A DNA stretch of 41,870 nt, taken from the NCBI RefSeq assembly GCF_000685155.1, contig NZ_JMIY01000001.1, positions 500,432 through 542,301 on the forward strand. The letters are read 5' to 3'. Position numbers and translations under genes: made by a program. This document shows, piece by piece, positions 27,050 to 38,439 of the stretch. Source of the stretch: Candidatus Methanoperedens nitratireducens. Lineage in GTDB: Archaea > Halobacteriota > Methanosarcinia > Methanosarcinales > Methanoperedenaceae. Every line of letters begins with the position of its first letter. The stretch's first letter is position 1. Below the pieces are notes generated by a model. It was given only the letters and a program-made list of their open reading frames with translations. It did no database searches and was not told the origin of the DNA.

Positions 27050-30000
27050 CTAATGTGTCCACGCATTTGAAAGCACTTCAGCTTGTTTCAGTACTAATTC
27101 AACGGCATCCTCTGCCTTATCCGGCGGGTACTTGTAACGCTGCAATGTACGGCGGACAAGAATGCGTAATTTAGCTCTTACACTATCGCGCACTTGCCAA
27201 TCCACTGTAGTGGATCTACGCAGTTTCTCTGTAATTTCTACAGCGATCTTTTTGAGAGTTTCATCACCTAATTCCCGCACGGCGCTTTCGTTATTTGCCA
27301 GGGCGTCATAAAAAGCCACCTCATCCGGATTCAGACCAAGCTCAGCATCGCGTTTCAGTACCCCTTGAAACTCCTTAGCCATTTGAATCAGTTCTTCAAT
27401 CACCTGGGCGGTTTCAATGGCACGGTTGTTGTACTTGCGTAGTGTTTCCTTTAAGCGGTCGCTGTATTTCATCTCCTGCACAACGTTATTGCGGGATTTC
27501 GATTTTATTGCATCTTTTAGTAGTTTTTCCAATAGCTCTACTGCCAGGTTACGGTAAGGCATCTGCCGAACATCTTCCAAAAACTCCTCCGACAGAAGGC
27601 CAATATCAGGTTTATCTAACCCGGCAAGCTCGAACACATCGGTAACACCTTCTGCAATCACGGCATTATCAAGAATCTGCTTGAGAATCGAATTTTTCTC
27701 TTCCTGGGTGCGCTTTTTATCGACAGATGTGAATTTACTAATGGCTGCTTTAATGGCCGAAAAAAATGCTATTTCAGCATGTAGCTCTTTGGCTTCATCC
27801 AGGGTGCTGCATAATGAATTGGCTTTGTTGATCGCCAGTATGGCATCTAGAAAGCGTTTTTTACCATCATCAAGCCCCAGGATATGGTTTGCTGCCGGTA
27901 CCAGCAGTTTGTAGGCGTTGTTCTCAAAGTTGCTGTAATCAAAACCATGGAATAGCCCGCGTACAAGATCTATTTTTTCCAGTAACACCGAAAACGCCTC
28001 TTCGGCGCGCAGGGTGGGTTCACCTTTACCTTTGGCATCGGTGTAGTTTTTCAGTGCTTGTTTTAATTCGCTGGCAATGCCGATGTAATCTACTACTAAG
28101 CCACCAGGTTTATCCTTAAATACCCGGTTTACCCGTGCTATGGCCTGCATCAGGTTGTGGCCTTTCATGGGTTTGTCGATATACATGGTATGACAACATG
28201 GCACATCGAAGCCAGTGAGCCACATATCACGCACAATCACCAATTTGAGCGGGTCACTGATATCTTTAAAGCGTTTTTCTATTTGTTTCTTAGTTTGCTT
28301 GTTATAGACGTGTGGCTGTAACAACTCACGATCAGATGCCGAGCCGGTCATCACAATTTTAATCGCACCTTTGTCAGGATCGGGATCATGCCAATCCGGG
28401 CGCAACTCCACAATTGCATTGTATAAGTGCACACAAATCTCGCGGCTCATAGCCACAATCATGCCTTTGCCTTCAATCGATCTGGTGCGCTCTTCAAAGT
28501 GTTCCACCAGATCAGCAGTCACCTGCCGGATGCGCGGTTTGGCCCCTACCAGCTTTTCTAAGCGGCTCCATTCACCTTTGGTTCTTTCACGGTTGGATAT
28601 ATCTTCTTCATCTTCCACCACATCTTCAACTTGATTAGATAGTGCTTCAATTTCGGCATGATTCAGGTCGAGTTTTGACAGACGCGATTCGTAATAAATG
28701 GGCACAGTCGCGCCATCGTCCACAGCGTCCTGAATGTCGTAAATGGAAACATAATCACCAAAGACTGCGCGGGTGTCTTTGTCTTCAAGGGCAATAGGTG
28801 TACCCGTGAATCCAATAAATGAAGCATGGGGCAGGGCATCACGCATGTATTTGGAATATCCGAATACCAGTTTTTTATCAATCACATTGCCGTTTTCATC
28901 TTTCACATCTATGTAGCGGCCTTTTTGACCATACTGGCTTCTGTGTGCCTCATCGGAGATTACTACAATATTATGGCGCTCGTTTAGGATTGGGTGCCCA
29001 TCTTCATCCCCGAAGGGTGAAAACTTTTGTACTGTTGTAAAAATGATGCCGCCCGATTCCCGCTCAGAGAGCATCTGGCGCAACTCATCACGGCTGTTAG
29101 CCTGAACCGGTGTTTGCTTGAACAACTCCTGGGCATTGGAGAATGTCTGGAACAGTTGACCGTCCAGGTCGTTGCGATCGGTCACTACTACCAGAGTTGG
29201 ATTATTCATTGCCGGTTGCTGTAACAACTTACCGGCATAACAACACATGGAGATACTCTTGCCTGAACCCTGGGTATGCCAGAATACTCCGGCTTTTTTG
29301 CTGCCGGGAACTACTTCTTTGCCATAGGTTGCACGGGCTTCGAATGACTTGTATTCATCCGGTATCTTTGAGGCTATCAGGGTTGCGTTTACCGCTTCGC
29401 GCACTGCATGGAACTGGTGATAACCGGCTATTTTCTTAGTGATTAATTCACCATCGGTTTCAAACAGCACAAAAAAGCGGATGTAATCCAGCAGCAATTC
29501 GCGGTTGAAAAATCCCCGCACCAGGGTTTCCAGTTGCCATTCCAGCAGCGGTTTATCATCTTCATGCTTGATGGTGCGCCAGGGTGCAAATCGTTCCTGG
29601 TTCGCAGTTAATGAGCCAATACGGGCAGTATAACCATCACTCACCACCAATGCTTCGTTAAACACAAACAGGTCGCTGATTTCATCTTTGTAGGTTTGGA
29701 GCTGATTAAAGGCATCCCAGATATCGGCATTCTCATCGTTCGGGCTTTTAAGCTCCAATACCGCGATGGGCAGGCCATTAATAAAACAGACCACATCCGC
29801 TCGGCGCGGCTGTTTTGTTCCCTGTACGGTGAACTGGTTGACCACTAAAAAACGATTGTTGGTGAGATTTTCAAAGTCTATTAAAAAGGCGCGGTCGTGT
29901 ATTGTCCTGTCATCTTTTCGATATTCAACCGGCACACCATCCAATAACAAGCGATGAAAGGCGCGGTTATTGGTTTTTAAATCCAGACCTTCAGGCTTTA

Positions 30001-30214
30001 AAACAAGAGCCATGGCTTGCTCAATAGCACTTTCGGGCAGGTGCGGATTAATACGTTTCAACCCTTCTTGCAGATACCGTTTTAACACAACCTCCTGGTA
30101 ATCGCTGCGTTCAGAGTTGTTTGAATCCGGGGCAATATCAGGGCCATAAACTACTTCCCATCTGTTATCCTGGAACCAGTTGAGACAGAGTTGTTCGAGT
30201 TGATCTTCGTTCAT
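27050..30214 (-). CDS. hsdR: Type I restriction enzyme R subunit HsdR
   Basis: Motor and nuclease subunit, 1054 residues from the ATG at 30214, which has a GGGGGAGGG site just before it; a TTG at 30232 would add six residues. The N-terminal nuclease domain contains 'DVVCFINGLPIAVLELKSPN', the PD-(D/E)xK core. The helicase domains carry Walker A 'HTQGSGKSISM' (about 310), the DEAH box 'VVISDEAHRSQYG' (about 420), 'IGFTGTPIA' and motif VI 'QAIARVNRVF'. The C-terminal helical region contacts the methylase. It translocates DNA and cuts at a distance from unmethylated sites. It is last in the operon, convergent with clpB. Confidence 0.96.
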   Translation of the reverse strand: MNEDQLEQLCLNWFQDNRWEVVYGPDIAPDSNNSERSDYQEVVLKRYLQEGLKRINPHLPESAIEQAMALVLKPEGLDLKTNNRAFHRLLLDGVPVEYRKDDRTIHDRAFLIDFENLTNNRFLVVNQFTVQGTKQPRRADVVCFINGLPIAVLELKSPNDENADIWDAFNQLQTYKDEISDLFVFNEALVVSDGYTARIGSLTANQERFAPWRTIKHEDDKPLLEWQLETLVRGFFNRELLLDYIRFFVLFETDGELITKKIAGYHQFHAVREAVNATLIASKIPDEYKSFEARATYGKEVVPGSKKAGVFWHTQGSGKSISMCCYAGKLLQQPAMNNPTLVVVTDRNDLDGQLFQTFSNAQELFKQTPVQANSRDELRQMLSERESGGIIFTTVQKFSPFGDEDGHPILNERHNIVVISDEAHRSQYGQKGRYIDVKDENGNVIDKKLVFGYSKYMRDALPHASFIGFTGTPIALEDKDTRAVFGDYVSIYDIQDAVDDGATVPIYYESRLSKLDLNHAEIEALSNQVEDVVEDEEDISNRERTKGEWSRLEKLVGAKPRIRQVTADLVEHFEERTRSIEGKGMIVAMSREICVHLYNAIVELRPDWHDPDPDKGAIKIVMTGSASDRELLQPHVYNKQTKKQIEKRFKDISDPLKLVIVRDMWLTGFDVPCCHTMYIDKPMKGHNLMQAIARVNRVFKDKPGGLVVDYIGIASELKQALKNYTDAKGKGEPTLRAEEAFSVLLEKIDLVRGLFHGFDYSNFENNAYKLLVPAANHILGLDDGKKRFLDAILAINKANSLCSTLDEAKELHAEIAFFSAIKAAISKFTSVDKKRTQEEKNSILKQILDNAVIAEGVTDVFELAGLDKPDIGLLSEEFLEDVRQMPYRNLAVELLEKLLKDAIKSKSRNNVVQEMKYSDRLKETLRKYNNRAIETAQVIEELIQMAKEFQGVLKRDAELGLNPDEVAFYDALANNESAVRELGDETLKKIAVEITEKLRRSTTVDWQVRDSVRAKLRILVRRTLQRYKYPPDKAEDAVELVLKQAEVLSNAWTH

Positions 30215-30218
30215 TTTA

Positions 30219-31247
30219 TTACCCTCCCCCAATCAATTTCCACAACAAAGCTTCAATGCATTCGTCATGATCCTCATCGGCAGGATACCAAATTGGGAAA
30301 ATATTGGCCATTGCTAGATGATCTCGCCGAGCTAACCGATCTTCATCTTCGCCAATACTGAGAAGAGCATAATGACGAATCGCAACATCGTGCCCTTTTG
30401 TCTCCACTAGCTGGGTCAGTACCTGAATTGTGCGATCAACGACCAAACTGCAACCAATAAAAAGTAGCGTTTTAGTACTAATTGCTTCAATTACATTTAG
30501 AAGACAGTTTCCCTCTCTATAGTGTCTCTGATATTCTGTATAGGTCAGTACCCGAGAATGCCTGGAATTGGCTTTGCCGTGTAATTTGATCAGCACTTTA
30601 CTTCCTTCCCCCAAGTACCTTGGGAGTTCGCGAGCATTTGCTCCCAATAAAATCTCCAAAAAGGATAAATTTGCAGCTTCATAGCAGCGTTTTATAACAT
30701 CGTCAAAGTTAGTAGTAATAATGCTGGTATTAAATATATATGGCAACATTTGTATCGTGCCTGCCAAATCTTCATCGTGCCCAAAGGCATTCTCTATGGC
30801 CTCATCGAAACTACCTGCAGGCATATCGTCAGCTAGCGCTTGTACTGCTTCTTCGTATTTCCCCTGAGAAAGTAAATTGTTTAAATCATCTTCAGATACT
30901 CGTGTTTCATTACGAAGTTGACAAAGAAACTTAGTCCAACCCGGATAACCACTTGGTATTGACATACCAGCACCAATAAACGGAATGACAGCCCCTCTTT
31001 TATAGGAATCTCTCAGTCGATTAAAACGGCCCTGATTATCATATAATCTAAGAATTTCGTCTGCTTTTATTAGAAGCCTTTTTTTTCTCTGATCTAGCCA
31101 GTCAGAAAATGCTTCATTATAACCGTCAGAATCCATTTCCTTCAATATAGAATCTGGTGTAAATGAAGAGCCTGCTATCTTCACATTACCATTATCTTCA
31201 ATCTCAGCGAGAAGTTCTTCATTAAATTTTCCTTTTAGAAAATCCAT
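30219..31247 (-). CDS. SIR2-domain protein inside the hsd operon
   Basis: Protein of 342 residues with an N-terminal helical extension (1-85) and a SIR2-like Rossmann domain. NAD-binding 'FIGAGMSIPSGYPGW' is at 90-104, 'TTNFDD' at 178-183 and 'IKLHGKA' at 220-226, with N180 and H223 as expected catalytic residues; 'LLFIGCSL' (261-268) closes the fold. Stand-alone SIR2 proteins of this type in defence systems (Thoeris ThsA, DSR, SIR2-Argonaute partners) destroy NAD when triggered by phage. Here it lies 2 bases after hsdS and 4 bases before the preferred hsdR start, so it is co-expressed with the restriction enzyme. A role as abortive-infection backup is inference. Confidence 0.85.
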   Translation of the reverse strand: MDFLKGKFNEELLAEIEDNGNVKIAGSSFTPDSILKEMDSDGYNEAFSDWLDQRKKRLLIKADEILRLYDNQGRFNRLRDSYKRGAVIPFIGAGMSIPSGYPGWTKFLCQLRNETRVSEDDLNNLLSQGKYEEAVQALADDMPAGSFDEAIENAFGHDEDLAGTIQMLPYIFNTSIITTNFDDVIKRCYEAANLSFLEILLGANARELPRYLGEGSKVLIKLHGKANSRHSRVLTYTEYQRHYREGNCLLNVIEAISTKTLLFIGCSLVVDRTIQVLTQLVETKGHDVAIRHYALLSIGEDEDRLARRDHLAMANIFPIWYPADEDHDECIEALLWKLIGGG

Positions 31248-31249
31248 TT

Positions 31250-32644
31250 TTAACTCTCCGCTTTATTAACAGTGTTTATTTCGAGCTTACCTGAGAGGAG
31301 TTTGGGGAGGAGGGTGTCGCGGATAGCGACAAGGTTGCGGAATTCCGCAATATTTGACGTAATATGATCAAAGAAAGGTTCCAATGTCTTCTTAAAATCC
31401 GAAGCAATACCCGAAGGTGGAATAACAATTTTTTTATCCTTTACAATCTGTTGACTAATATTCTGTTGAGCAGAACCTACTGCAACCATATTAAAATCGT
31501 CGCGCTTAGAGAGAAGTATGAAAAACAGAAACGGATATCCTACCTCAGATTTTGCCACCAATCCACTGCAAGCTTGATTTGCAGTACCGCGAGTCTTCAA
31601 TAACCCTAATCGACCAACTGTTGGTGAAGCATACAACGCTATCAATATAGTATCAGGTTCCCATAAATGGCAAGACGATTCTTTGAGCCCCTCTTCGGTT
31701 ATGTGCTCTTCGGAATCAAGCAATGGCTCATCAAAAAGTTCACCGGTCTTATACCATGGAATAGTTCCATCTTTCCAATATCGATTTTCCATGCGCTTTG
31801 GCGTTCCACCATTGGTTATAGAAACACACAAATCTGCGACGGTCCCAACCCTCCACCCCTCCGGCACTTCCCCCAATTCCGAATCCTGCATGGCGGCAGG
31901 GAACAGTTCGGCGGTGGTTTTGAGTTGAGTGTAATGTTCTGGCTTTTCGGCCTGGAGTTGGTATAATTCTTCATCAGTCTTGCCTGAGATGGCGCGCATG
32001 GCGGCGCGGGTTACGCCTTCGGCATCCTCTCCTGCTTCAATGGTGGTAATTTTTGCTTTGACAGGCTCAAAATCCACAAACCAGCTTTTGAATAAAGCCT
32101 GCGCCATGGCTTCGAGGGTTTGGTTGATCTGGCGGTTGAGTTCGATTTTGTCGGCAATTGAAGATAATATATCTGCAATTTGATCTTCATTACCTTTATG
32201 GCGAGGGATTTTCAGATTTTTAAGTACTGGGATTCTTATATTACTGACTGTTGATCCTGTACCTTCATTCCACAAGATTTGTTGTCGAACAAAAGGTGAC
32301 TGAAGCGCCCAAAATAAATATTTGCCATTCACTCCCTTCTTCGGTCGTAGCAAAACTTGTCTTTGTCCTAAACAACATTTAAGACCTTTTGGAATAAGAC
32401 AAACCTCTCCCATAGGTGCTTCGCGAGTAATTACAATATCTCCGAATTGTGGTGCAGCTCGCTTTATTCGTTTTTGGAAATCCTCTTCACTGGTATAGCT
32501 TGGATTGCTAAGATCCAAAATTCCATCTTTAATATTCTGATTGCGAAGCACAATTAAGCCTTTGTCTGTCCACTTTGGCGTAAAGTGGGGACAATCTACA
32601 ATCAGTTCACACATATCCTCTAGTGAGTTGGTTTCAGATTCCAT
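31250..32644 (-). CDS. hsdS: Type I restriction specificity subunit HsdS
   Basis: Specificity protein of 464 residues. Two target-recognition domains are visible: TRD1 (about 1-145), then a conserved helical spacer with 'NRQINQTLEAMAQALFKSWFVDFEPV' (in pieces, about 170-195), TRD2 starting at 'LGEVPEGWRVGTVADLC' (about 255), and a second helix at the end ('LVAIRDTLLPKLLSGKLEI'). It guides HsdM and HsdR to a two-part DNA site, which cannot be read from sequence. The first ATG (32644) lies inside the preceding mini-ORF. Confidence 0.95.
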   Translation of the reverse strand: MESETNSLEDMCELIVDCPHFTPKWTDKGLIVLRNQNIKDGILDLSNPSYTSEEDFQKRIKRAAPQFGDIVITREAPMGEVCLIPKGLKCCLGQRQVLLRPKKGVNGKYLFWALQSPFVRQQILWNEGTGSTVSNIRIPVLKNLKIPRHKGNEDQIADILSSIADKIELNRQINQTLEAMAQALFKSWFVDFEPVKAKITTIEAGEDAEGVTRAAMRAISGKTDEELYQLQAEKPEHYTQLKTTAELFPAAMQDSELGEVPEGWRVGTVADLCVSITNGGTPKRMENRYWKDGTIPWYKTGELFDEPLLDSEEHITEEGLKESSCHLWEPDTILIALYASPTVGRLGLLKTRGTANQACSGLVAKSEVGYPFLFFILLSKRDDFNMVAVGSAQQNISQQIVKDKKIVIPPSGIASDFKKTLEPFFDHITSNIAEFRNLVAIRDTLLPKLLSGKLEINTVNKAES

Positions 32645-32741
32645 AACCCAACCCCGCCAAATTCCGCTTAATCTGCGCTTCCAGCCTGTTCATCCCATAC
32701 TTAAATACATGATCAGCAAAATAATCTATCTGCTCCTTCAT
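32634..32741 (-). CDS. 35-codon mini-ORF resembling the HsdM C-terminus
   Basis: This ORF starts with ATG at 32741 in a 4-base overlap with the AlbA/HTH gene and ends within the start of hsdS. Its second half, 'NRLEAQIKRNLAGLGYG', is nearly the same as the last residues of HsdM here ('DKLEAQIKQNLAGLGFNV'). It may be a duplicated HsdM tail left when the AlbA/HTH gene entered between hsdM and hsdS. It may be translated to couple the two genes, or may have no product function. Confidence 0.55.
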   Translation of the reverse strand: MKEQIDYFADHVFKYGMNRLEAQIKRNLAGLGYGI

Positions 32742-33340
32742 TTTTCCATCACTTCCCACATTCCACCTTTGTCAGGCCCGATTCGTTTAATGATTTTGTT
32801 CTGCTTTAAATTCGCAATTTGCATCTCAATTGCCCGTGATGATACGCCGATCTTTTCTGCAATCTCTTTTGCGCTGATAGCTGGATTTTCTCTTATAAGC
32901 AGAATTATTTTCTCCGAAGTTTTCTCCGAAGTTTTCTCCGAAGCTTTAGTGATCTTAACTAACGGGAATGTAATCTTATAGAAATCAATGCCACCTGAAA
33001 CCACTGGTTCGTCTTTATAATAAGCCTTCCAGCCATTGAACATTTTGTCAAAACCTGAACCTGCGTTCTCAGCCAGTTTAATGACCCTGAATATTTTTGT
33101 AACAATAGGGTTTCTTGGCATTGTGAAATCCTGCTCGATCTTCTCGGCATTATCAACACCACTGATCTTGAAGGTCTTGTCAACCTGACTCACTCCAAAA
33201 ACAAGCCAGCCACCATTCGTATTCGAAAATGCACTAACAGTTTCAAAACTGCTTTTGGGAATGGAAGTCTTCGCCTCTTTCACCTCAAAATCTTCCCACT
33301 CAAGTTCTTCCAACCTGTCAAACAGTTCCTTACGATCCAT
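32738..33340 (-). CDS. AlbA_2/HTH regulator with internal deletion
   Basis: Protein of 200 residues. The N-terminus is an AlbA_2 (schlafen-type) domain ('WEDFEVKEAKTSIPKSSFE', 'FSNTNGGWLVFGV'). At about residue 72 the sequence jumps to the C-terminal part of the same family ('RNPIVTKIFRVIKLAENAGSG', in pieces). It ends in a winged helix (about 140-190, 'AEKIGVSSRAIEMQIANLKQ') after a short repeat of 'SEKT'. Full-length relatives have about 450-480 residues, so roughly 250 residues are missing in frame. Such proteins are common passengers of type I restriction operons. It may still bind DNA. Confidence 0.75.
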   Translation of the reverse strand: MDRKELFDRLEELEWEDFEVKEAKTSIPKSSFETVSAFSNTNGGWLVFGVSQVDKTFKISGVDNAEKIEQDFTMPRNPIVTKIFRVIKLAENAGSGFDKMFNGWKAYYKDEPVVSGGIDFYKITFPLVKITKASEKTSEKTSEKIILLIRENPAISAKEIAEKIGVSSRAIEMQIANLKQNKIIKRIGPDKGGMWEVMEK

Positions 33341-33377
33341 AATCCGAATTACTCCTTCTTAAACGACCCTATTTGAA

Positions 33378-35108
33378 TCAAACATTAAATCCCAATCCCG
33401 CCAAATTCTGCTTGATCTGCGCTTCCAGCTTATCACTCTCTTCAAACTGCGCTTTCAACTGGCTGGTGAGTGCGGCCATTTTTTCCGCGAAAGGCACGCC
33501 GTCGTCTTCCTCCGCTTCTGCGCCCACATAGCGGCCTGGGGTTAGCACAAAGTCGTGTTTTTGTATTGTGGCGAAATTAGCTGAAAAACAGAAGCCAGCC
33601 TGGTTATTCTCCTCTGACCACTCTCGTTGCCATTTATGGAAAGTATTGGTAATTTGCCTGGTATCTTCTTCTTTGAAATCCCTCAGTACACGGTCTTTCA
33701 TATAACCTAAATTGCGCGCGTCGATAAACAGCACTTCACCACGTCTATCTCTTTTGCCATTTCGCGCACTCTTATCTTTGGTTAAAAACCAGATACATGC
33801 GGGTATCTGGGTATTGGTGAACAGTTGCCCCGGTAGCGCCACCATACATTCTACCAGATCTTGCTCGACCAGTGTTCTGCGAATCTCACCTTCGTTATTG
33901 GTGTTACTGCTCATGGAGCCGTTGGCCAATAACAGCGCCATGCTGCCGGTGGGTGCAAGATGGTACAGCATGTGCAACATCCACGCAAAGTTGGCGTTAC
34001 CCGCCGGTGGGGTAAGTATGCGTTTTTCGCCGTTGGTGTTAATCGTCCAGCGCACATCGTCAGCCAGCTTTTCATGCCACCAATCTTTCATATTAAAAGG
34101 CGGGTTTGCCATCACAAAATCGGCGCGCAGGTCGGGATGCTGATCGTCTAAGAAACTATCAGCATTCTTTTTGCCAAAATTAAAATCAATACCGCGGATG
34201 GCCATGTTCATGGCAGCAAGCTTCCATGTGGTTGGGTTTGATTCTTGCCCGTACACAGAGATTTGTTTTTTCTGCTCGGCTGCATCGTAGTGTTTAATCT
34301 TGGCGTGTTCTTCAATGAATTTGTCACTGGAAACAAAAAAACCACCGCTACCCATGGCAGGATCGTACACGCGGCCTTTGTATGGCTCCAGCATTTCCAC
34401 TATCAAGGTAACAATGGATTTGGGCGTGTAATACTGTCCGCCCTGCTTACCTTCGGCGAGAGCAAATTCACCTAAAAAGTATTCATACACATGGCCGAGA
34501 ATGTCTTTGGATTTTAGGTTGAGTTTTTCGCCTTTATACTCTGGATCATGAAATTTGGTGGTGCTAAATTCATTGACCAGACCGATGAGTTTGTCGGTAT
34601 CCAACTGGTATTGGCTGATGCGGTTTAAAATGCCTTTGAGTTTTGGGTTGGCTTTTTCGATTTCATCGAAAGCATTATCAATTAACCATGATGCAGAGCG
34701 CATTTTTACATCTTCGCCTTGCTCATTTTCCCCAATCACGCTATTGGTTGGAAGGATGATTTTTTCTTTAAGGGTGTTCCAGCGGGCGATTTTTGGCACC
34801 CAAAAGACATTCTTTTCTGTGTAGTAGTCGTTAATTTCCAGCTCGGCTTCTATGGCTTGCTTGTAGTCTTCGTCGCTGTCGTAATCGTCGCGGGGCATAT
34901 GATAGATGTTATCGTCATCGTCTTTTTGAAACAGCTCGATGAGTTCTTGCTGGCGCTCTTCGAAGGCATCAGACACGTATTTAAGGAAAATAAGCCCTAA
35001 CACCACGTGTTTGTAGTTGGCAGCATCCAGGTGAGAGCGCAGTTTATCGGCGGCTTTCCAGAGCTGGGCGTCGAGTTCATTTAAAAATTGCTGTTCAATA
35101 TCTTTCAT
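33378..35108 (-). CDS. hsdM: Type I DNA methylase subunit HsdM
   Basis: N6-adenine methyltransferase of 576 residues, first gene of the restriction operon. An N-terminal helical domain (about 1-150) is followed by the SAM-binding motif I 'VYDPAMGSGGFFVSS' (about 244-258) and the catalytic 'DFVMANPPFNMKDWW' (about 334-348, NPPF). The end 'LEAQIKQNLAGLGFNV' is a coiled-coil tail for HsdS contact. It protects host DNA from HsdR. The start is at ATG 35108. The 284-base gap up to the tRNA gene (35109-35392) shows no gene. Confidence 0.96.
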   Translation of the reverse strand: MKDIEQQFLNELDAQLWKAADKLRSHLDAANYKHVVLGLIFLKYVSDAFEERQQELIELFQKDDDDNIYHMPRDDYDSDEDYKQAIEAELEINDYYTEKNVFWVPKIARWNTLKEKIILPTNSVIGENEQGEDVKMRSASWLIDNAFDEIEKANPKLKGILNRISQYQLDTDKLIGLVNEFSTTKFHDPEYKGEKLNLKSKDILGHVYEYFLGEFALAEGKQGGQYYTPKSIVTLIVEMLEPYKGRVYDPAMGSGGFFVSSDKFIEEHAKIKHYDAAEQKKQISVYGQESNPTTWKLAAMNMAIRGIDFNFGKKNADSFLDDQHPDLRADFVMANPPFNMKDWWHEKLADDVRWTINTNGEKRILTPPAGNANFAWMLHMLYHLAPTGSMALLLANGSMSSNTNNEGEIRRTLVEQDLVECMVALPGQLFTNTQIPACIWFLTKDKSARNGKRDRRGEVLFIDARNLGYMKDRVLRDFKEEDTRQITNTFHKWQREWSEENNQAGFCFSANFATIQKHDFVLTPGRYVGAEAEEDDGVPFAEKMAALTSQLKAQFEESDKLEAQIKQNLAGLGFNV

Positions 35109-35392: not shown

Positions 35393-35500
35393 TGCTCCGA
35401 TCGGGATTTGAACCCGAGTCCCTGGCTATCTTTATTTTAGCGCCTTCGCACGCTTAAAACTTGAAAGGCCAGAATGATTGGCCTGCTACACTATCGGAGC
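35393..35500 (-). tRNA. tRNA-Glu (anticodon UUC) with a 34-base intron
   Basis: The acceptor stem is GCTCCGA (from 35500) paired with TCGGAGC, with discriminator A at 35393. The anticodon loop CTTTCAA between CTGGC and GCCAG gives anticodon UUC. Loop and stem are interrupted after position 37 by about 34 bases (35428-35461), the standard archaeal intron position. The intron pairs with itself (TTTTA and GCG with CGC and TAAAA), forming the bulge-helix-bulge cut by the splicing endonuclease. The mature tRNA is about 74 bases. Confidence 0.93.
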
Positions 35501-36639: not shown

Positions 36640-38439
36640 ATGGTGAAGGACTCAGTTGGCGTTATATTCGGAAAAACCGAATCTTTAAGTTTCATGTTTG
36701 CTGTCTCTGATAGTACAGCTATCAAAAAATCAGATTATCTTAAGATCTGGCACGAATCAGACGGCTGGACCCTTGCCCAGGTATCCTCTATTACCCGCTC
36801 AAGTGAAGATTTCTCTATAGAAAAAGCTGTCGATGTTGCTGAAGGCTCATCCAAAGTCGGAGACATGAACGAGCAGATTATTGCACAGGCTACTGTGATA
36901 GGCTCAAGGGATAAGGAAGGAATCCTGCGCGTGCCTAAATCCCCTTTCAGTCCCGGAGATAAGGTCTTTAAAGCAGATGAGTTGCTAACAAAACAGACCC
37001 TTGGCCTGATGCGCGGGGATATTTATATCGGCCTGCTTGAAGGACAGAACATCAGGGTCAATCTCGATGCGAATAATCTTGTCCAGAAGCACTGCAGCAT
37101 ACTTGCCAAGACAGGTGCGGGGAAATCCTATACAAGCGGGGTGATCCTGGAAGAACTCCTCGATAAGAGCGTCCCGCTTCTGATCATCGACCCGCACGGC
37201 GAGTACGGGACATTGAAATTTCCCAACGAAGAAAAACCTGCATCTTTTGAGCGATATGGAATAGCGCCAAAGGATTATGCTGCCCAGATAACAGTATATA
37301 CACCTGCCAATATGGTGCTCAACCCGGGGGCAGATGAGCTTTTCCGGTTAAACGGAGTAAATCTCGGAATAAAGGATTTTATGCAATTCTTTTCTGATGA
37401 GCACTCACAGAACCAGACAGGCATTCTGTTCGAGGCTATCTCAAAGCTCAAGACTGAGAAACAGACCTATACTATTGATGATATTATCTCTGAGGTCGGC
37501 CAGAATAAGAGCAAGGCAAAATGGAATGTTATCAACAGGCTTGAGGCATTACGTGATACGGGGATATTATCTGATAATGCCACGACGGTTAATGATCTTA
37601 TCCAGGAGGGCAGGGCATCTATAATTGATATGAAGGGCGTAAATCCTGATCTTCAGGCAATGATAGTCGCAAAGTTATGCAATGACATTTTTGAGGCACG
37701 AAAACTCAATACAGTGCCCCCGTGCATGCTGGTGATTGAGGAGGCGCATAACTTCTGTCCTGAAAAGGGGTTTGGAGGGACAGTGAGTACTGATATCCTG
37801 CGCACGATCGCCTCAGAAGGCAGGAAATTCGGTCTTGGACTTATGGTTGTCTCACAGCGCCCGGCCCGTGTGGATAAGAATATTCTCTCACAGTGCAATA
37901 CCCAGATAATAATGAAGGTGACAAATCCCAATGACCTGAAGGCCATCAGCAAAGGACTTGAGGGTATCAGCTCTGGAGTAGAGGAGGATATCAAGAGCCT
38001 ATCTCCTGGTGTGGCGATGATTGTGAGCAATTATATCGAACGACCCGTGCTTGTGGATGTCAGGATAAGAAAGAGCAAGCATGGAGGGGCAAGTGTACCG
38101 GTTGTCAAAGCGCCTATCACTGATATTAAAACACCTGCCATAGAGAAGATAGAAAAGCTTCTATCAGGGCAGAGCAAGGAACAAACGGCAATATCCATAT
38201 CCTCGCGTTCTATTTTGAGAAAAATCCTGCCTGTCCAGGTCACAGAACAAGAGGGGGAACATACAGATCAAATCAGAAAACATATAGAACAGACCAAGGA
38301 ACATATAGAACAGGCCAGGGAACATATAATAGAATTTCAAGATGATCAAACTGAAAATGAGAAACCGATGCAAAAGAAACCGAAAGCAAAACATGAGGTG
38401 AGCCTTTATACCAAGATGTTCGGTTCGAGGAAGAAATGA
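36640..38439 (+). CDS. HerA-like DNA translocase ATPase
   Basis: Hexameric FtsK/HerA-family ATPase of 599 residues. A beta-barrel HAS-type domain (about 1-145) is followed by the RecA-like motor with Walker A 'AKTGAGKS' (156-163), '[10 protein letters not shown]' (about 182-191), Walker B '[11 protein letters not shown]' (about 360-370) and the sensor '[14 protein letters not shown]'. HerA usually works with NurA nuclease in end resection, but no NurA is adjacent. The C-terminus (about 530-585) is a low-complexity 'HIEQ(T/A)(K/R)EH' repeat. It overlaps thiC by 4 bases. Confidence 0.9.

What the first reader, a model, noticed from the sequence alone, without database searches (positions are those of the whole stretch)
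30214..35108. SIR2 NADase-like gene built into a type I restriction operon
Seen: minus-strand order hsdM, AlbA/HTH, mini-ORF, hsdS, SIR2, hsdR, with gaps or overlaps of a few bases from AlbA/HTH to hsdR. Known: SIR2 proteins in Thoeris, DSR and Argonaute systems deplete NAD; PrrC and RloC show that suicide effectors can be kept silent by a type I restriction enzyme and released when phage inhibit it. Inference: the SIR2 protein may guard this restriction complex and trigger NAD loss when restriction is blocked. I know of no defined system with exactly this order.
Basis: partly seen in the sequence, partly recalled or inferred. Interest (0 to 1): 0.8.

Follow-up and report, generated by a model that had tools for sequence, protein, structure and literature searches.

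The report
NADase toxin built into restriction operon
An archaeal virus-defence operon that cuts foreign DNA carries, between two of its core genes, a gene for an enzyme predicted to destroy the vital molecule NAD; the same arrangement recurs across bacteria and archaea, and a small shared 'adaptor' segment links this enzyme and two other toxin types to the same spot, which suggests a plug-in suicide module wired to the DNA-cutting machine.

Summary
A Candidatus Methanoperedens (archaeon) contig has hsdM, a truncated AlbA/HTH gene, a 35-codon mini-ORF, hsdS, SIR2 and hsdR, tightly packed on the minus strand. The mini-ORF is a duplicated hsdM tail and the AlbA gene an in-frame internal deletion. 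The SIR2 gene is no local accident: all 40 relatives carrying the same N-terminal ~60 residues lie in a type I operon, 38 directly after hsdS and 38 with hsdR downstream, in several bacterial phyla and in archaea. Catalytic Asn180/His223 are invariant among 44 aligned relatives and close pairs show purifying selection. New here: the N-terminal segment is an undescribed adaptor. It also occurs on two HEPN-type effectors (N-terminal in one, C-terminal in an Abi_C protein) in the same hsdS-hsdR slot, while relatives of the same effectors without it lie outside such operons. prrC occupies the same slot. Best reading: a modular NADase effector docked on the restriction complex and released or activated when the complex is disabled, as with PrrC; docking, trigger and NAD loss are inferred. 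The SIR2/type I link and suicide-coupling idea were published in 2012. New variant of a known kind.

The parts
33378..35108 (-). hsdM, type I modification methylase, 576 aa
   Evidence: Pfam HsdM_N + N6_Mtase; 96% identical protein in congener L014/L073
32738..33340 (-). AlbA_2 / HATPase_c_4 / HTH gene, 200 aa, internally deleted in frame (468 aa in the congener)
   Evidence: Pfam; DNA alignment shows a 792-bp deletion with ~10-bp microhomology at 33121-33130; full-length gene in L014
32634..32741 (-). mini-ORF (35 codons) = duplicated hsdM 3' end (..RLEAQIKRNLAGLGYGI vs hsdM ..KLEAQIKQNLAGLGFNV), overlapping the AlbA stop and the hsdS start
   Evidence: sequence; 39-nt direct repeat, 92%
31250..32644 (-). 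hsdS, specificity subunit, two target-recognition domains, 464 aa
   Evidence: Pfam Methylase_S, two stretches; PADLOC Specificity_I
30219..31247 (-). SIR2 NADase-like gene, 342 aa
   Evidence: Pfam SIR2_2; PADLOC ThsA/LmuA/Dsr1; N180 aligns with DSR2 N133 and H223 with DSR2 H171; AlphaFold2 pLDDT 90, best PDB folds ThsA, DSR2, KomC
31062..31247 (-). adaptor segment of SIR2 (residues 1-62), shared with HEPN and Abi_C effectors of the same slot
   Evidence: no Pfam match and no convincing NCBIfam match (best E 0.097); no PDB match
27050..30214 (-). hsdR, type I restriction subunit (nuclease + SWI2/SNF2 translocase)
   Evidence: Pfam HSDR_N, SWI2_SNF2, T1R_D3-like, T1RH-like_C; start at 30214 supported

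Best explanation
This is a type I restriction-modification operon with a built-in abortive-infection arm. The 342-aa protein has two parts: residues 1-62 form a small adaptor that, by inference, docks it onto the HsdM/HsdS/HsdR machinery; residues ~87-321 form a SIR2 NADase of the ThsA/DSR2 type. While the complex is intact the NADase is held inactive; when a virus blocks or dismantles the restriction enzyme the NADase is released or activated, NAD falls and the infected cell stops. This is the logic of PrrC, whose gene sits in the same slot. Shown: operon, intact and conserved active site, purifying selection, fixed slot across phyla, adaptor shared by three effector types in that slot, allele swapping at the slot. 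Inferred: docking partner, silencing, trigger, NAD loss.
For: Position: all 40 adaptor-bearing SIR2 relatives are in type I operons; 38 lie directly after hsdS (most gaps -4 to +12), the other 2 are separated from it by one gene; 38 have hsdR downstream, 32 directly; the 2 without hsdR are at contig ends. A divergent SIR2 set follows hsdS at the end of EcoEI-type hsdR-hsdM-hsdS operons. Activity: GAG, TTN180xD, H223G and GC motifs invariant in 44 relatives; dN/dS 0.03-0.23 in pairs where dS is measurable; fold and catalytic residues match ThsA and DSR2 NADases. Coupling: a profile built only from SIR2 N-termini finds the same segment in a 340-aa HEPN-like protein (RNxxxH) of a congener (E 1.5e-8), its gammaproteobacterial homologue (E 3e-10), and C-terminally in Abi_C proteins (E 6.5e-6, 7.7e-5, 4e-4), all between hsdS and hsdR or next to hsdR. 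Abi_C plasmid relatives without the segment (3 of 3) and complete SIR2 relatives without it (6 of 6) are outside hsd operons. Window and L073 share 94-97% DNA through hsdM to the hsdS start and 88.7% from the hsdR ATG, yet carry SIR2 genes 28% identical, swapped between the hsdS 3' end and the hsdR ATG: the function was replaced, not lost. prrC slot and co-immunoprecipitation with EcoprrI/HsdR: PMC3014915.
Against: No interaction, activity or phage data. Distances among SIR2 proteins track HsdM/HsdR only weakly (Spearman 0.31-0.40, against 0.90 for HsdM with HsdR), so SIR2 is shuffled among scaffolds and need not have a tailored interface. The slot also carries many toxin-like genes in which no adaptor was found: RhuM, Fic, PIN, MNT/HEPN, TIR. 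Genes embedded in type I operons can act on their own (TgvAB, PMC11411939). The adaptor match of the Abi_C proteins is modest, and of the EcoEI-linked SIR2 set inconclusive (hhalign 66%).
Confidence: 0.47

Rival explanations
1. Passive cargo: the hsdS-hsdR junction is a recombination hotspot where any defence or toxin gene lands, and SIR2 works independently of the restriction enzyme.
For: Slot occupants are very diverse (RhuM, Fic, PIN, MNT/HEPN, TIR, AAA_21, Abi_2, AlbA). Others call the site a potential hotspot (DarTG2 between hsdS and hsdR, PMC12255303); embedded TgvAB protects without HsdR activity (PMC11411939). Weak mirror-tree signal.
Against: The adaptor is tied to the slot: it occurs on three effector types only there, and relatives of those effectors without it are elsewhere. 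Every adaptor-only genome hit examined lay after hsdS or directly before hsdR.
Confidence: 0.25
2. RM-as-sensor: instead of guarding against inhibition, the complex switches the NADase on when it binds or translocates on unmodified foreign DNA, so that NADase and DNA cleavage fire together.
For: Same anatomy; PrrC activation in extracts also needs DNA with cleavable unmodified sites and nucleotide (PMC3014915). SPARSA and DSR show SIR2 effectors coupled to sensors (general knowledge; PMC10781750 listed).
Against: Firing at each restriction event would kill cells that restriction alone would save. No direct evidence either way.
Confidence: 0.18
3. Addiction module: Hsd subunits act as antitoxin; loss of the operon frees the longer-lived NADase and kills the cell, which stabilises the mobile operon.
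For: Wide horizontal spread, including plasmids. TA-type genes (MNT/HEPN, RhuM, Fic) share the slot.
Against: No stability data; not exclusive of the guard model.
Confidence: 0.07

Closest known systems
PrrC / EcoprrI (E. coli type IC with latent anticodon nuclease)
   Same: Same slot hsdM-hsdS-X-hsdR (PMC3014915); suicidal effector within a type I operon, held latent by the RM complex.
   Different: PrrC is an ABC-ATPase/HEPN tRNase; here the effector is a SIR2 NADase with a separate ~60-aa adaptor. Latency and trigger are untested here.
Predicted Sir2 genes in type I RM loci (Makarova et al. 2012, PMC3506569)
   Same: States that Sir2 enzymes are linked to type I RM systems and proposes immunity-suicide coupling.
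   Different: The passages read do not mention a fixed slot, an adaptor, active-site conservation or allele swapping.
DarTG2 in a type I RMS (RRDM island, PMC12255303) and TgvAB (PMC11411939)
   Same: Defence genes embedded in a type I operon, DarTG2 between hsdS and hsdR.
   Different: DarTG2 is a toxin-antitoxin pair and TgvAB a type IV restriction system; neither is a SIR2.
[quoted passage not shown] 2005, cited in PMC5183652)
   Same: ORFs inserted between hsdR and hsdS or between hsdS and hsdM.
   Different: RloC is an ABC/HEPN anticodon nuclease; no SIR2 or adaptor noted in the passages read.
ThsA (Thoeris), DSR2, KomC: SIR2 NADases
   Same: Same fold and catalytic Asn/His.
   Different: ThsA has a C-terminal sensor domain and a TIR partner; DSR2 is ~1000 aa; here the SIR2 domain is at the C-terminus behind an adaptor, in an hsd operon.
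SIR2-HerA (Gao_19 / Nezha)
   Same: SIR2 effector; loci can lie beside RM genes in defence islands (PMC11514479).
   Different: No HerA in this operon. The HerA-like gene at 36640-38439 is on the other strand beyond PspA and is not near the operon in congener L014.

Membership tests
Type I restriction-modification system | HsdM, HsdS and HsdR with their full domain sets in one operon | tested here: met
   Pfam domains over cut-off for all three; PADLOC MTase_I, Specificity_I, REase_I
Type I restriction-modification system | Methylation and restriction activity | not testable with these tools
   needs methylome or EOP data
SIR2-domain NADase | SIR2 fold with GAG, TTN.D and HG motifs and catalytic Asn/His | tested here: met
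   N180/H223 align with DSR2 N133/H171; invariant in 44 relatives; fold match
SIR2-domain NADase | Hydrolyses NAD | not testable with these tools
   no assay; deacetylase or other activity not excluded
PrrC/EcoprrI-type guarded restriction system | Effector gene between hsdS and hsdR of a type I operon | tested here: met
   prrC order from PMC3014915
PrrC/EcoprrI-type guarded restriction system | PrrC protein: ABC ATPase + anticodon nuclease | tested here: not met
   342-aa SIR2 protein with no ABC or HEPN domain
PrrC/EcoprrI-type guarded restriction system | Effector bound and silenced by the RM complex, released by an anti-restriction factor | not testable with these tools
   complex modelling and experiments not available
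Thoeris | ThsB TIR partner gene and C-terminal sensor domain on ThsA | tested here: not met
   no TIR among the operon and flanking genes scanned, protein ends after the SIR2 domain
DSR1/DSR2 | About 1000-aa protein with large C-terminal sensor region | tested here: not met
   342 aa; Dsr1 NCBIfam score 21.5 against cut-off 1400
SPARSA (SIR2-Argonaute) | Adjacent pAgo gene | tested here: not met
   neighbours are hsdS and hsdR
SIR2-HerA | HerA in the same operon | tested here: not met
   HerA-like gene is divergent and ~5 kb away, and is absent near the operon in L014

The most novel reading that the evidence does not exclude
An undescribed ~60-residue adaptor domain defines a modular family of effectors (SIR2 NADase, two unrelated HEPN-type RNases) that plug into type I restriction enzymes at the hsdS-hsdR slot. 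Type I RM would then be a general immune platform with exchangeable suicide effectors, PrrC being one unrelated solution of the same kind.
Probability: 0.5. Interest if true: 0.82.

Novelty: new variant of a known kind. Interest (0 to 1): 0.64.

Why it matters
Phages commonly carry anti-restriction proteins, so restriction alone is easily beaten. A NADase wired to the restriction enzyme would turn that countermeasure into the trigger of cell suicide. PrrC is the well-studied precedent; this family would show the principle to be widespread across bacteria and archaea, modular, and marked by a searchable adaptor domain, so guarded restriction systems could be found by sequence and the 2012 immunity-suicide coupling hypothesis tested with an NAD assay.

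Tried and rejected
Phage-borne origin: no match among 50,697 phage records and only two viral-labelled contigs, both with complete hsd operons. HerA, PspA or PspAA as parts of the system: not near the operon in congener L014. AlbA/HTH as an essential part: present in the three Methanoperedens-related operons but detected near few of the other SIR2 operons, and internally deleted here. Mini-ORF as a separate small gene: it is the duplicated hsdM tail. Co-evolution to name the docking partner: inconclusive (partial correlation of adaptor with HsdR given HsdM 0.28, with HsdM given HsdR -0.11). Adaptor identity: nothing in Pfam or PDB sequences; the best NCBIfam match is E 0.097. More HEPN-effector relatives: none in plasmids or in 258 gammaproteobacterial-class genomes. 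Adaptor homology of the EcoEI-linked SIR2 set: inconclusive. Literature: no experimental study of a SIR2 inside a type I operon found in the open-access library; subscription papers and preprints were not searchable, including Payne et al. 2024 on embedded defences and Makarova 2011.
Full report
OBSERVATION. The minus-strand operon is real: hsdM 35108-33378, AlbA_2/HATPase_c_4/HTH 33340-32738, a 35-codon mini-ORF 32741-32634, hsdS 32644-31250, SIR2 31247-30219 and hsdR 30214-27050. A Shine-Dalgarno-like GGAG lies just before the SIR2 start in the hsdS 3' end, and GGGGGAGGG just before the hsdR ATG in the SIR2 3' end, as in a tightly coupled operon. The genome is 3.2 Mb; a same-genus relative (G024) corresponds to the record 'Candidatus Methanoperedens nitroreducens BE2012' (L014/L073), so the host is a Methanoperedens archaeon.

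TWO DETAILS CORRECTED. The mini-ORF is a copy of the hsdM 3' end (39-nt repeat, 92%) and overlaps the hsdS start; the relatives L073 and L058 also show hsdM-tail-like sequence before hsdS. The AlbA gene is 468 aa in L014 and 200 aa here, through a 792-bp in-frame deletion with ~10-bp microhomology.

SIR2 PROTEIN. SIR2_2 is the only Pfam hit. PADLOC profiles ThsA, LmuA and Dsr1 match the SIR2 part. The catalytic Asn and His of DSR2 (N133, H171) align with N180 and H223; the residue positions rest on the printed alignment and on the H171A mutant entries. AlphaFold2 with 44 relatives gives pLDDT 90.2 and pTM 0.89; the best PDB folds are ThsA, DSR2 and KomC. Residues P89, F90, G92-G94, T178-N180, D182, H223, G224, G265 and C266 are invariant in 44 relatives. 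dN/dS is 0.03-0.23 where measurable. Exceptions to an intact motif set in the wider list are truncated contigs, one disrupted operon (L060) and single substitutions (L037, L053, L067).

DISTRIBUTION. Plasmid relatives in Ketogulonicigenium, Photobacterium and Vibrio sit in hsdM-hsdS-(X)-SIR2-hsdR operons. A genome-wide scan, with patterns drawn from the SIR2 domain and not from the N-terminus, found 62 loci. Of all loci, 40 carry the N-terminal segment of the window protein. All 40 are in type I operons: 38 directly after hsdS, 2 after one extra gene; hsdR follows in 38 (32 directly), and the other 2 are at contig ends. Hosts include alpha-, beta- and gammaproteobacteria, Desulfobacterota, Cloacimonadota, Bacteroidota, Nitrospira, Cyanobium and archaea; several are MAGs, but isolates such as Acidovorax delafieldii DSM 64, Bradyrhizobium and Cyanobium are included. 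Six complete SIR2 relatives without the segment are not in hsd operons; one (L012) is fused to a domain resembling formylglycine-generating enzyme (my reading of the sequence) beside Csm-like type III CRISPR genes. A more divergent set follows hsdS at the end of EcoEI-type hsdR-hsdM-hsdS operons. Some of the 40 are close relatives, so they are not 40 independent events.

THE ADAPTOR. A same-genus operon (L017) has in the slot a 340-aa protein whose first ~52 residues match the window SIR2 (37%, E 4e-8) but whose body is different and bears RNxxxH, the HEPN RNase motif (my reading; no Pfam hit). A profile built only from SIR2 N-termini hits it at 1.5e-8. The profile over whole genomes then found another SIR2 operon (G211), a gammaproteobacterial homologue of the HEPN protein (35% identical throughout) in hsdM-hsdS-HEPN-two genes-hsdR, and a 225-aa Abi_C protein with the segment at its C-terminus between hsdS and hsdR. 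More Abi_C cases lie directly before hsdR (L144, L139) and in a Paraburkholderia plasmid as hsdM-hsdS-Abi_C-hsdR. Three Abi_C plasmid relatives that match only over the Abi_C part are not in hsd operons, and the profile does not hit them. The segment is therefore a mobile ~60-residue module found at either end of unrelated effectors, in one genomic slot. No Pfam or PDB match; best NCBIfam match E 0.097. That it binds Hsd proteins is inference.

SLOT DYNAMICS. Window and L073 are 94-97% identical from hsdM to the start of hsdS, differ in both target-recognition domains, share the hsdS centre (89%) and 29 bp near the hsdS 3' end, carry SIR2 genes 28% identical, and match again (88.7%) exactly from the hsdR ATG. 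A SIR2 allele was exchanged for another adaptor-SIR2. HsdM and HsdR distances correlate at 0.90 but SIR2 with either only at 0.31-0.40. Other hsdR loci of this family often carry toxin-like genes upstream of hsdR: RhuM, Fic, PIN, MNT/HEPN, TIR, Abi_C, AlbA. I did not obtain a formal frequency, because many loci are truncated and not every neighbour was scanned.

MECHANISM. prrC lies in the same slot, co-precipitates with its RM enzyme and is freed by the T4 Stp peptide (PMC3014915; PMC3874165). With the adaptor, the simplest model is an RM-docked NADase released or activated when restriction is disabled (0.47). Rivals: passive cargo (0.25), RM-as-sensor (0.18), addiction (0.07).

PRIOR ART. 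Makarova et al. 2012 state that Sir2 enzymes are linked to type I RM and propose that immunity components hold toxins in check (PMC3506569); Anantharaman et al. 2013 extend this to HEPN proteins (PMC3710099). DarTG2 and TgvAB are tested examples of embedded genes. I found no experimental work on a SIR2 in a type I operon and no description of the adaptor, in an open-access library only.

VERDICT. Real, conserved and probably functional; the concept is partly known. The new element is the adaptor-defined effector family.

Noticed in passing
window 35393-35500 (-): A tRNA gene (Rfam RF00005, 48.5 bits), apparently Glu-type with an intron, lies just upstream of hsdM; ARAGORN in bacterial mode misses it. 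No second copy of its 3' end in the window.
   Followed up: partly
window 32738-33340 (-): AlbA_2/HATPase_c_4/HTH gene with a 792-bp in-frame deletion relative to the congener L073.
   Followed up: yes
L010 9109-9909; L066 6990-7802: A 266-270 aa protein without Pfam match sits between hsdS and SIR2 in Photobacterium and a Vibrionales genome.
   Followed up: no
L012 8738-10426: A same-genus genome has an adaptor-less SIR2 fused to what looks like a formylglycine-generating-enzyme domain, next to Csm-like type III CRISPR genes.
   Followed up: no
L122 428-1498: A TIR-domain protein occupies the slot upstream of hsdR in one genome (G473): a possible second NADase type in the same place.
   Followed up: partly
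L131 3749-4909: Abi_C protein upstream of hsdR whose C-terminus weakly matches the HsdR C-terminal domain (T1RH-like_C, E 0.003): a possible effector fused to a restriction-subunit fragment.
   Followed up: no
L045 12980-15913: Downstream of an EcoEI-type hsd-SIR2 operon lies a TIR-nSTAND1 protein of 977 aa.
   Followed up: no
window 36640-38439 (+): HerA-like ATPase divergent from pspA/pspAA next to the operon; judged unrelated because it is not near the operon in congener L014.
   Followed up: partly
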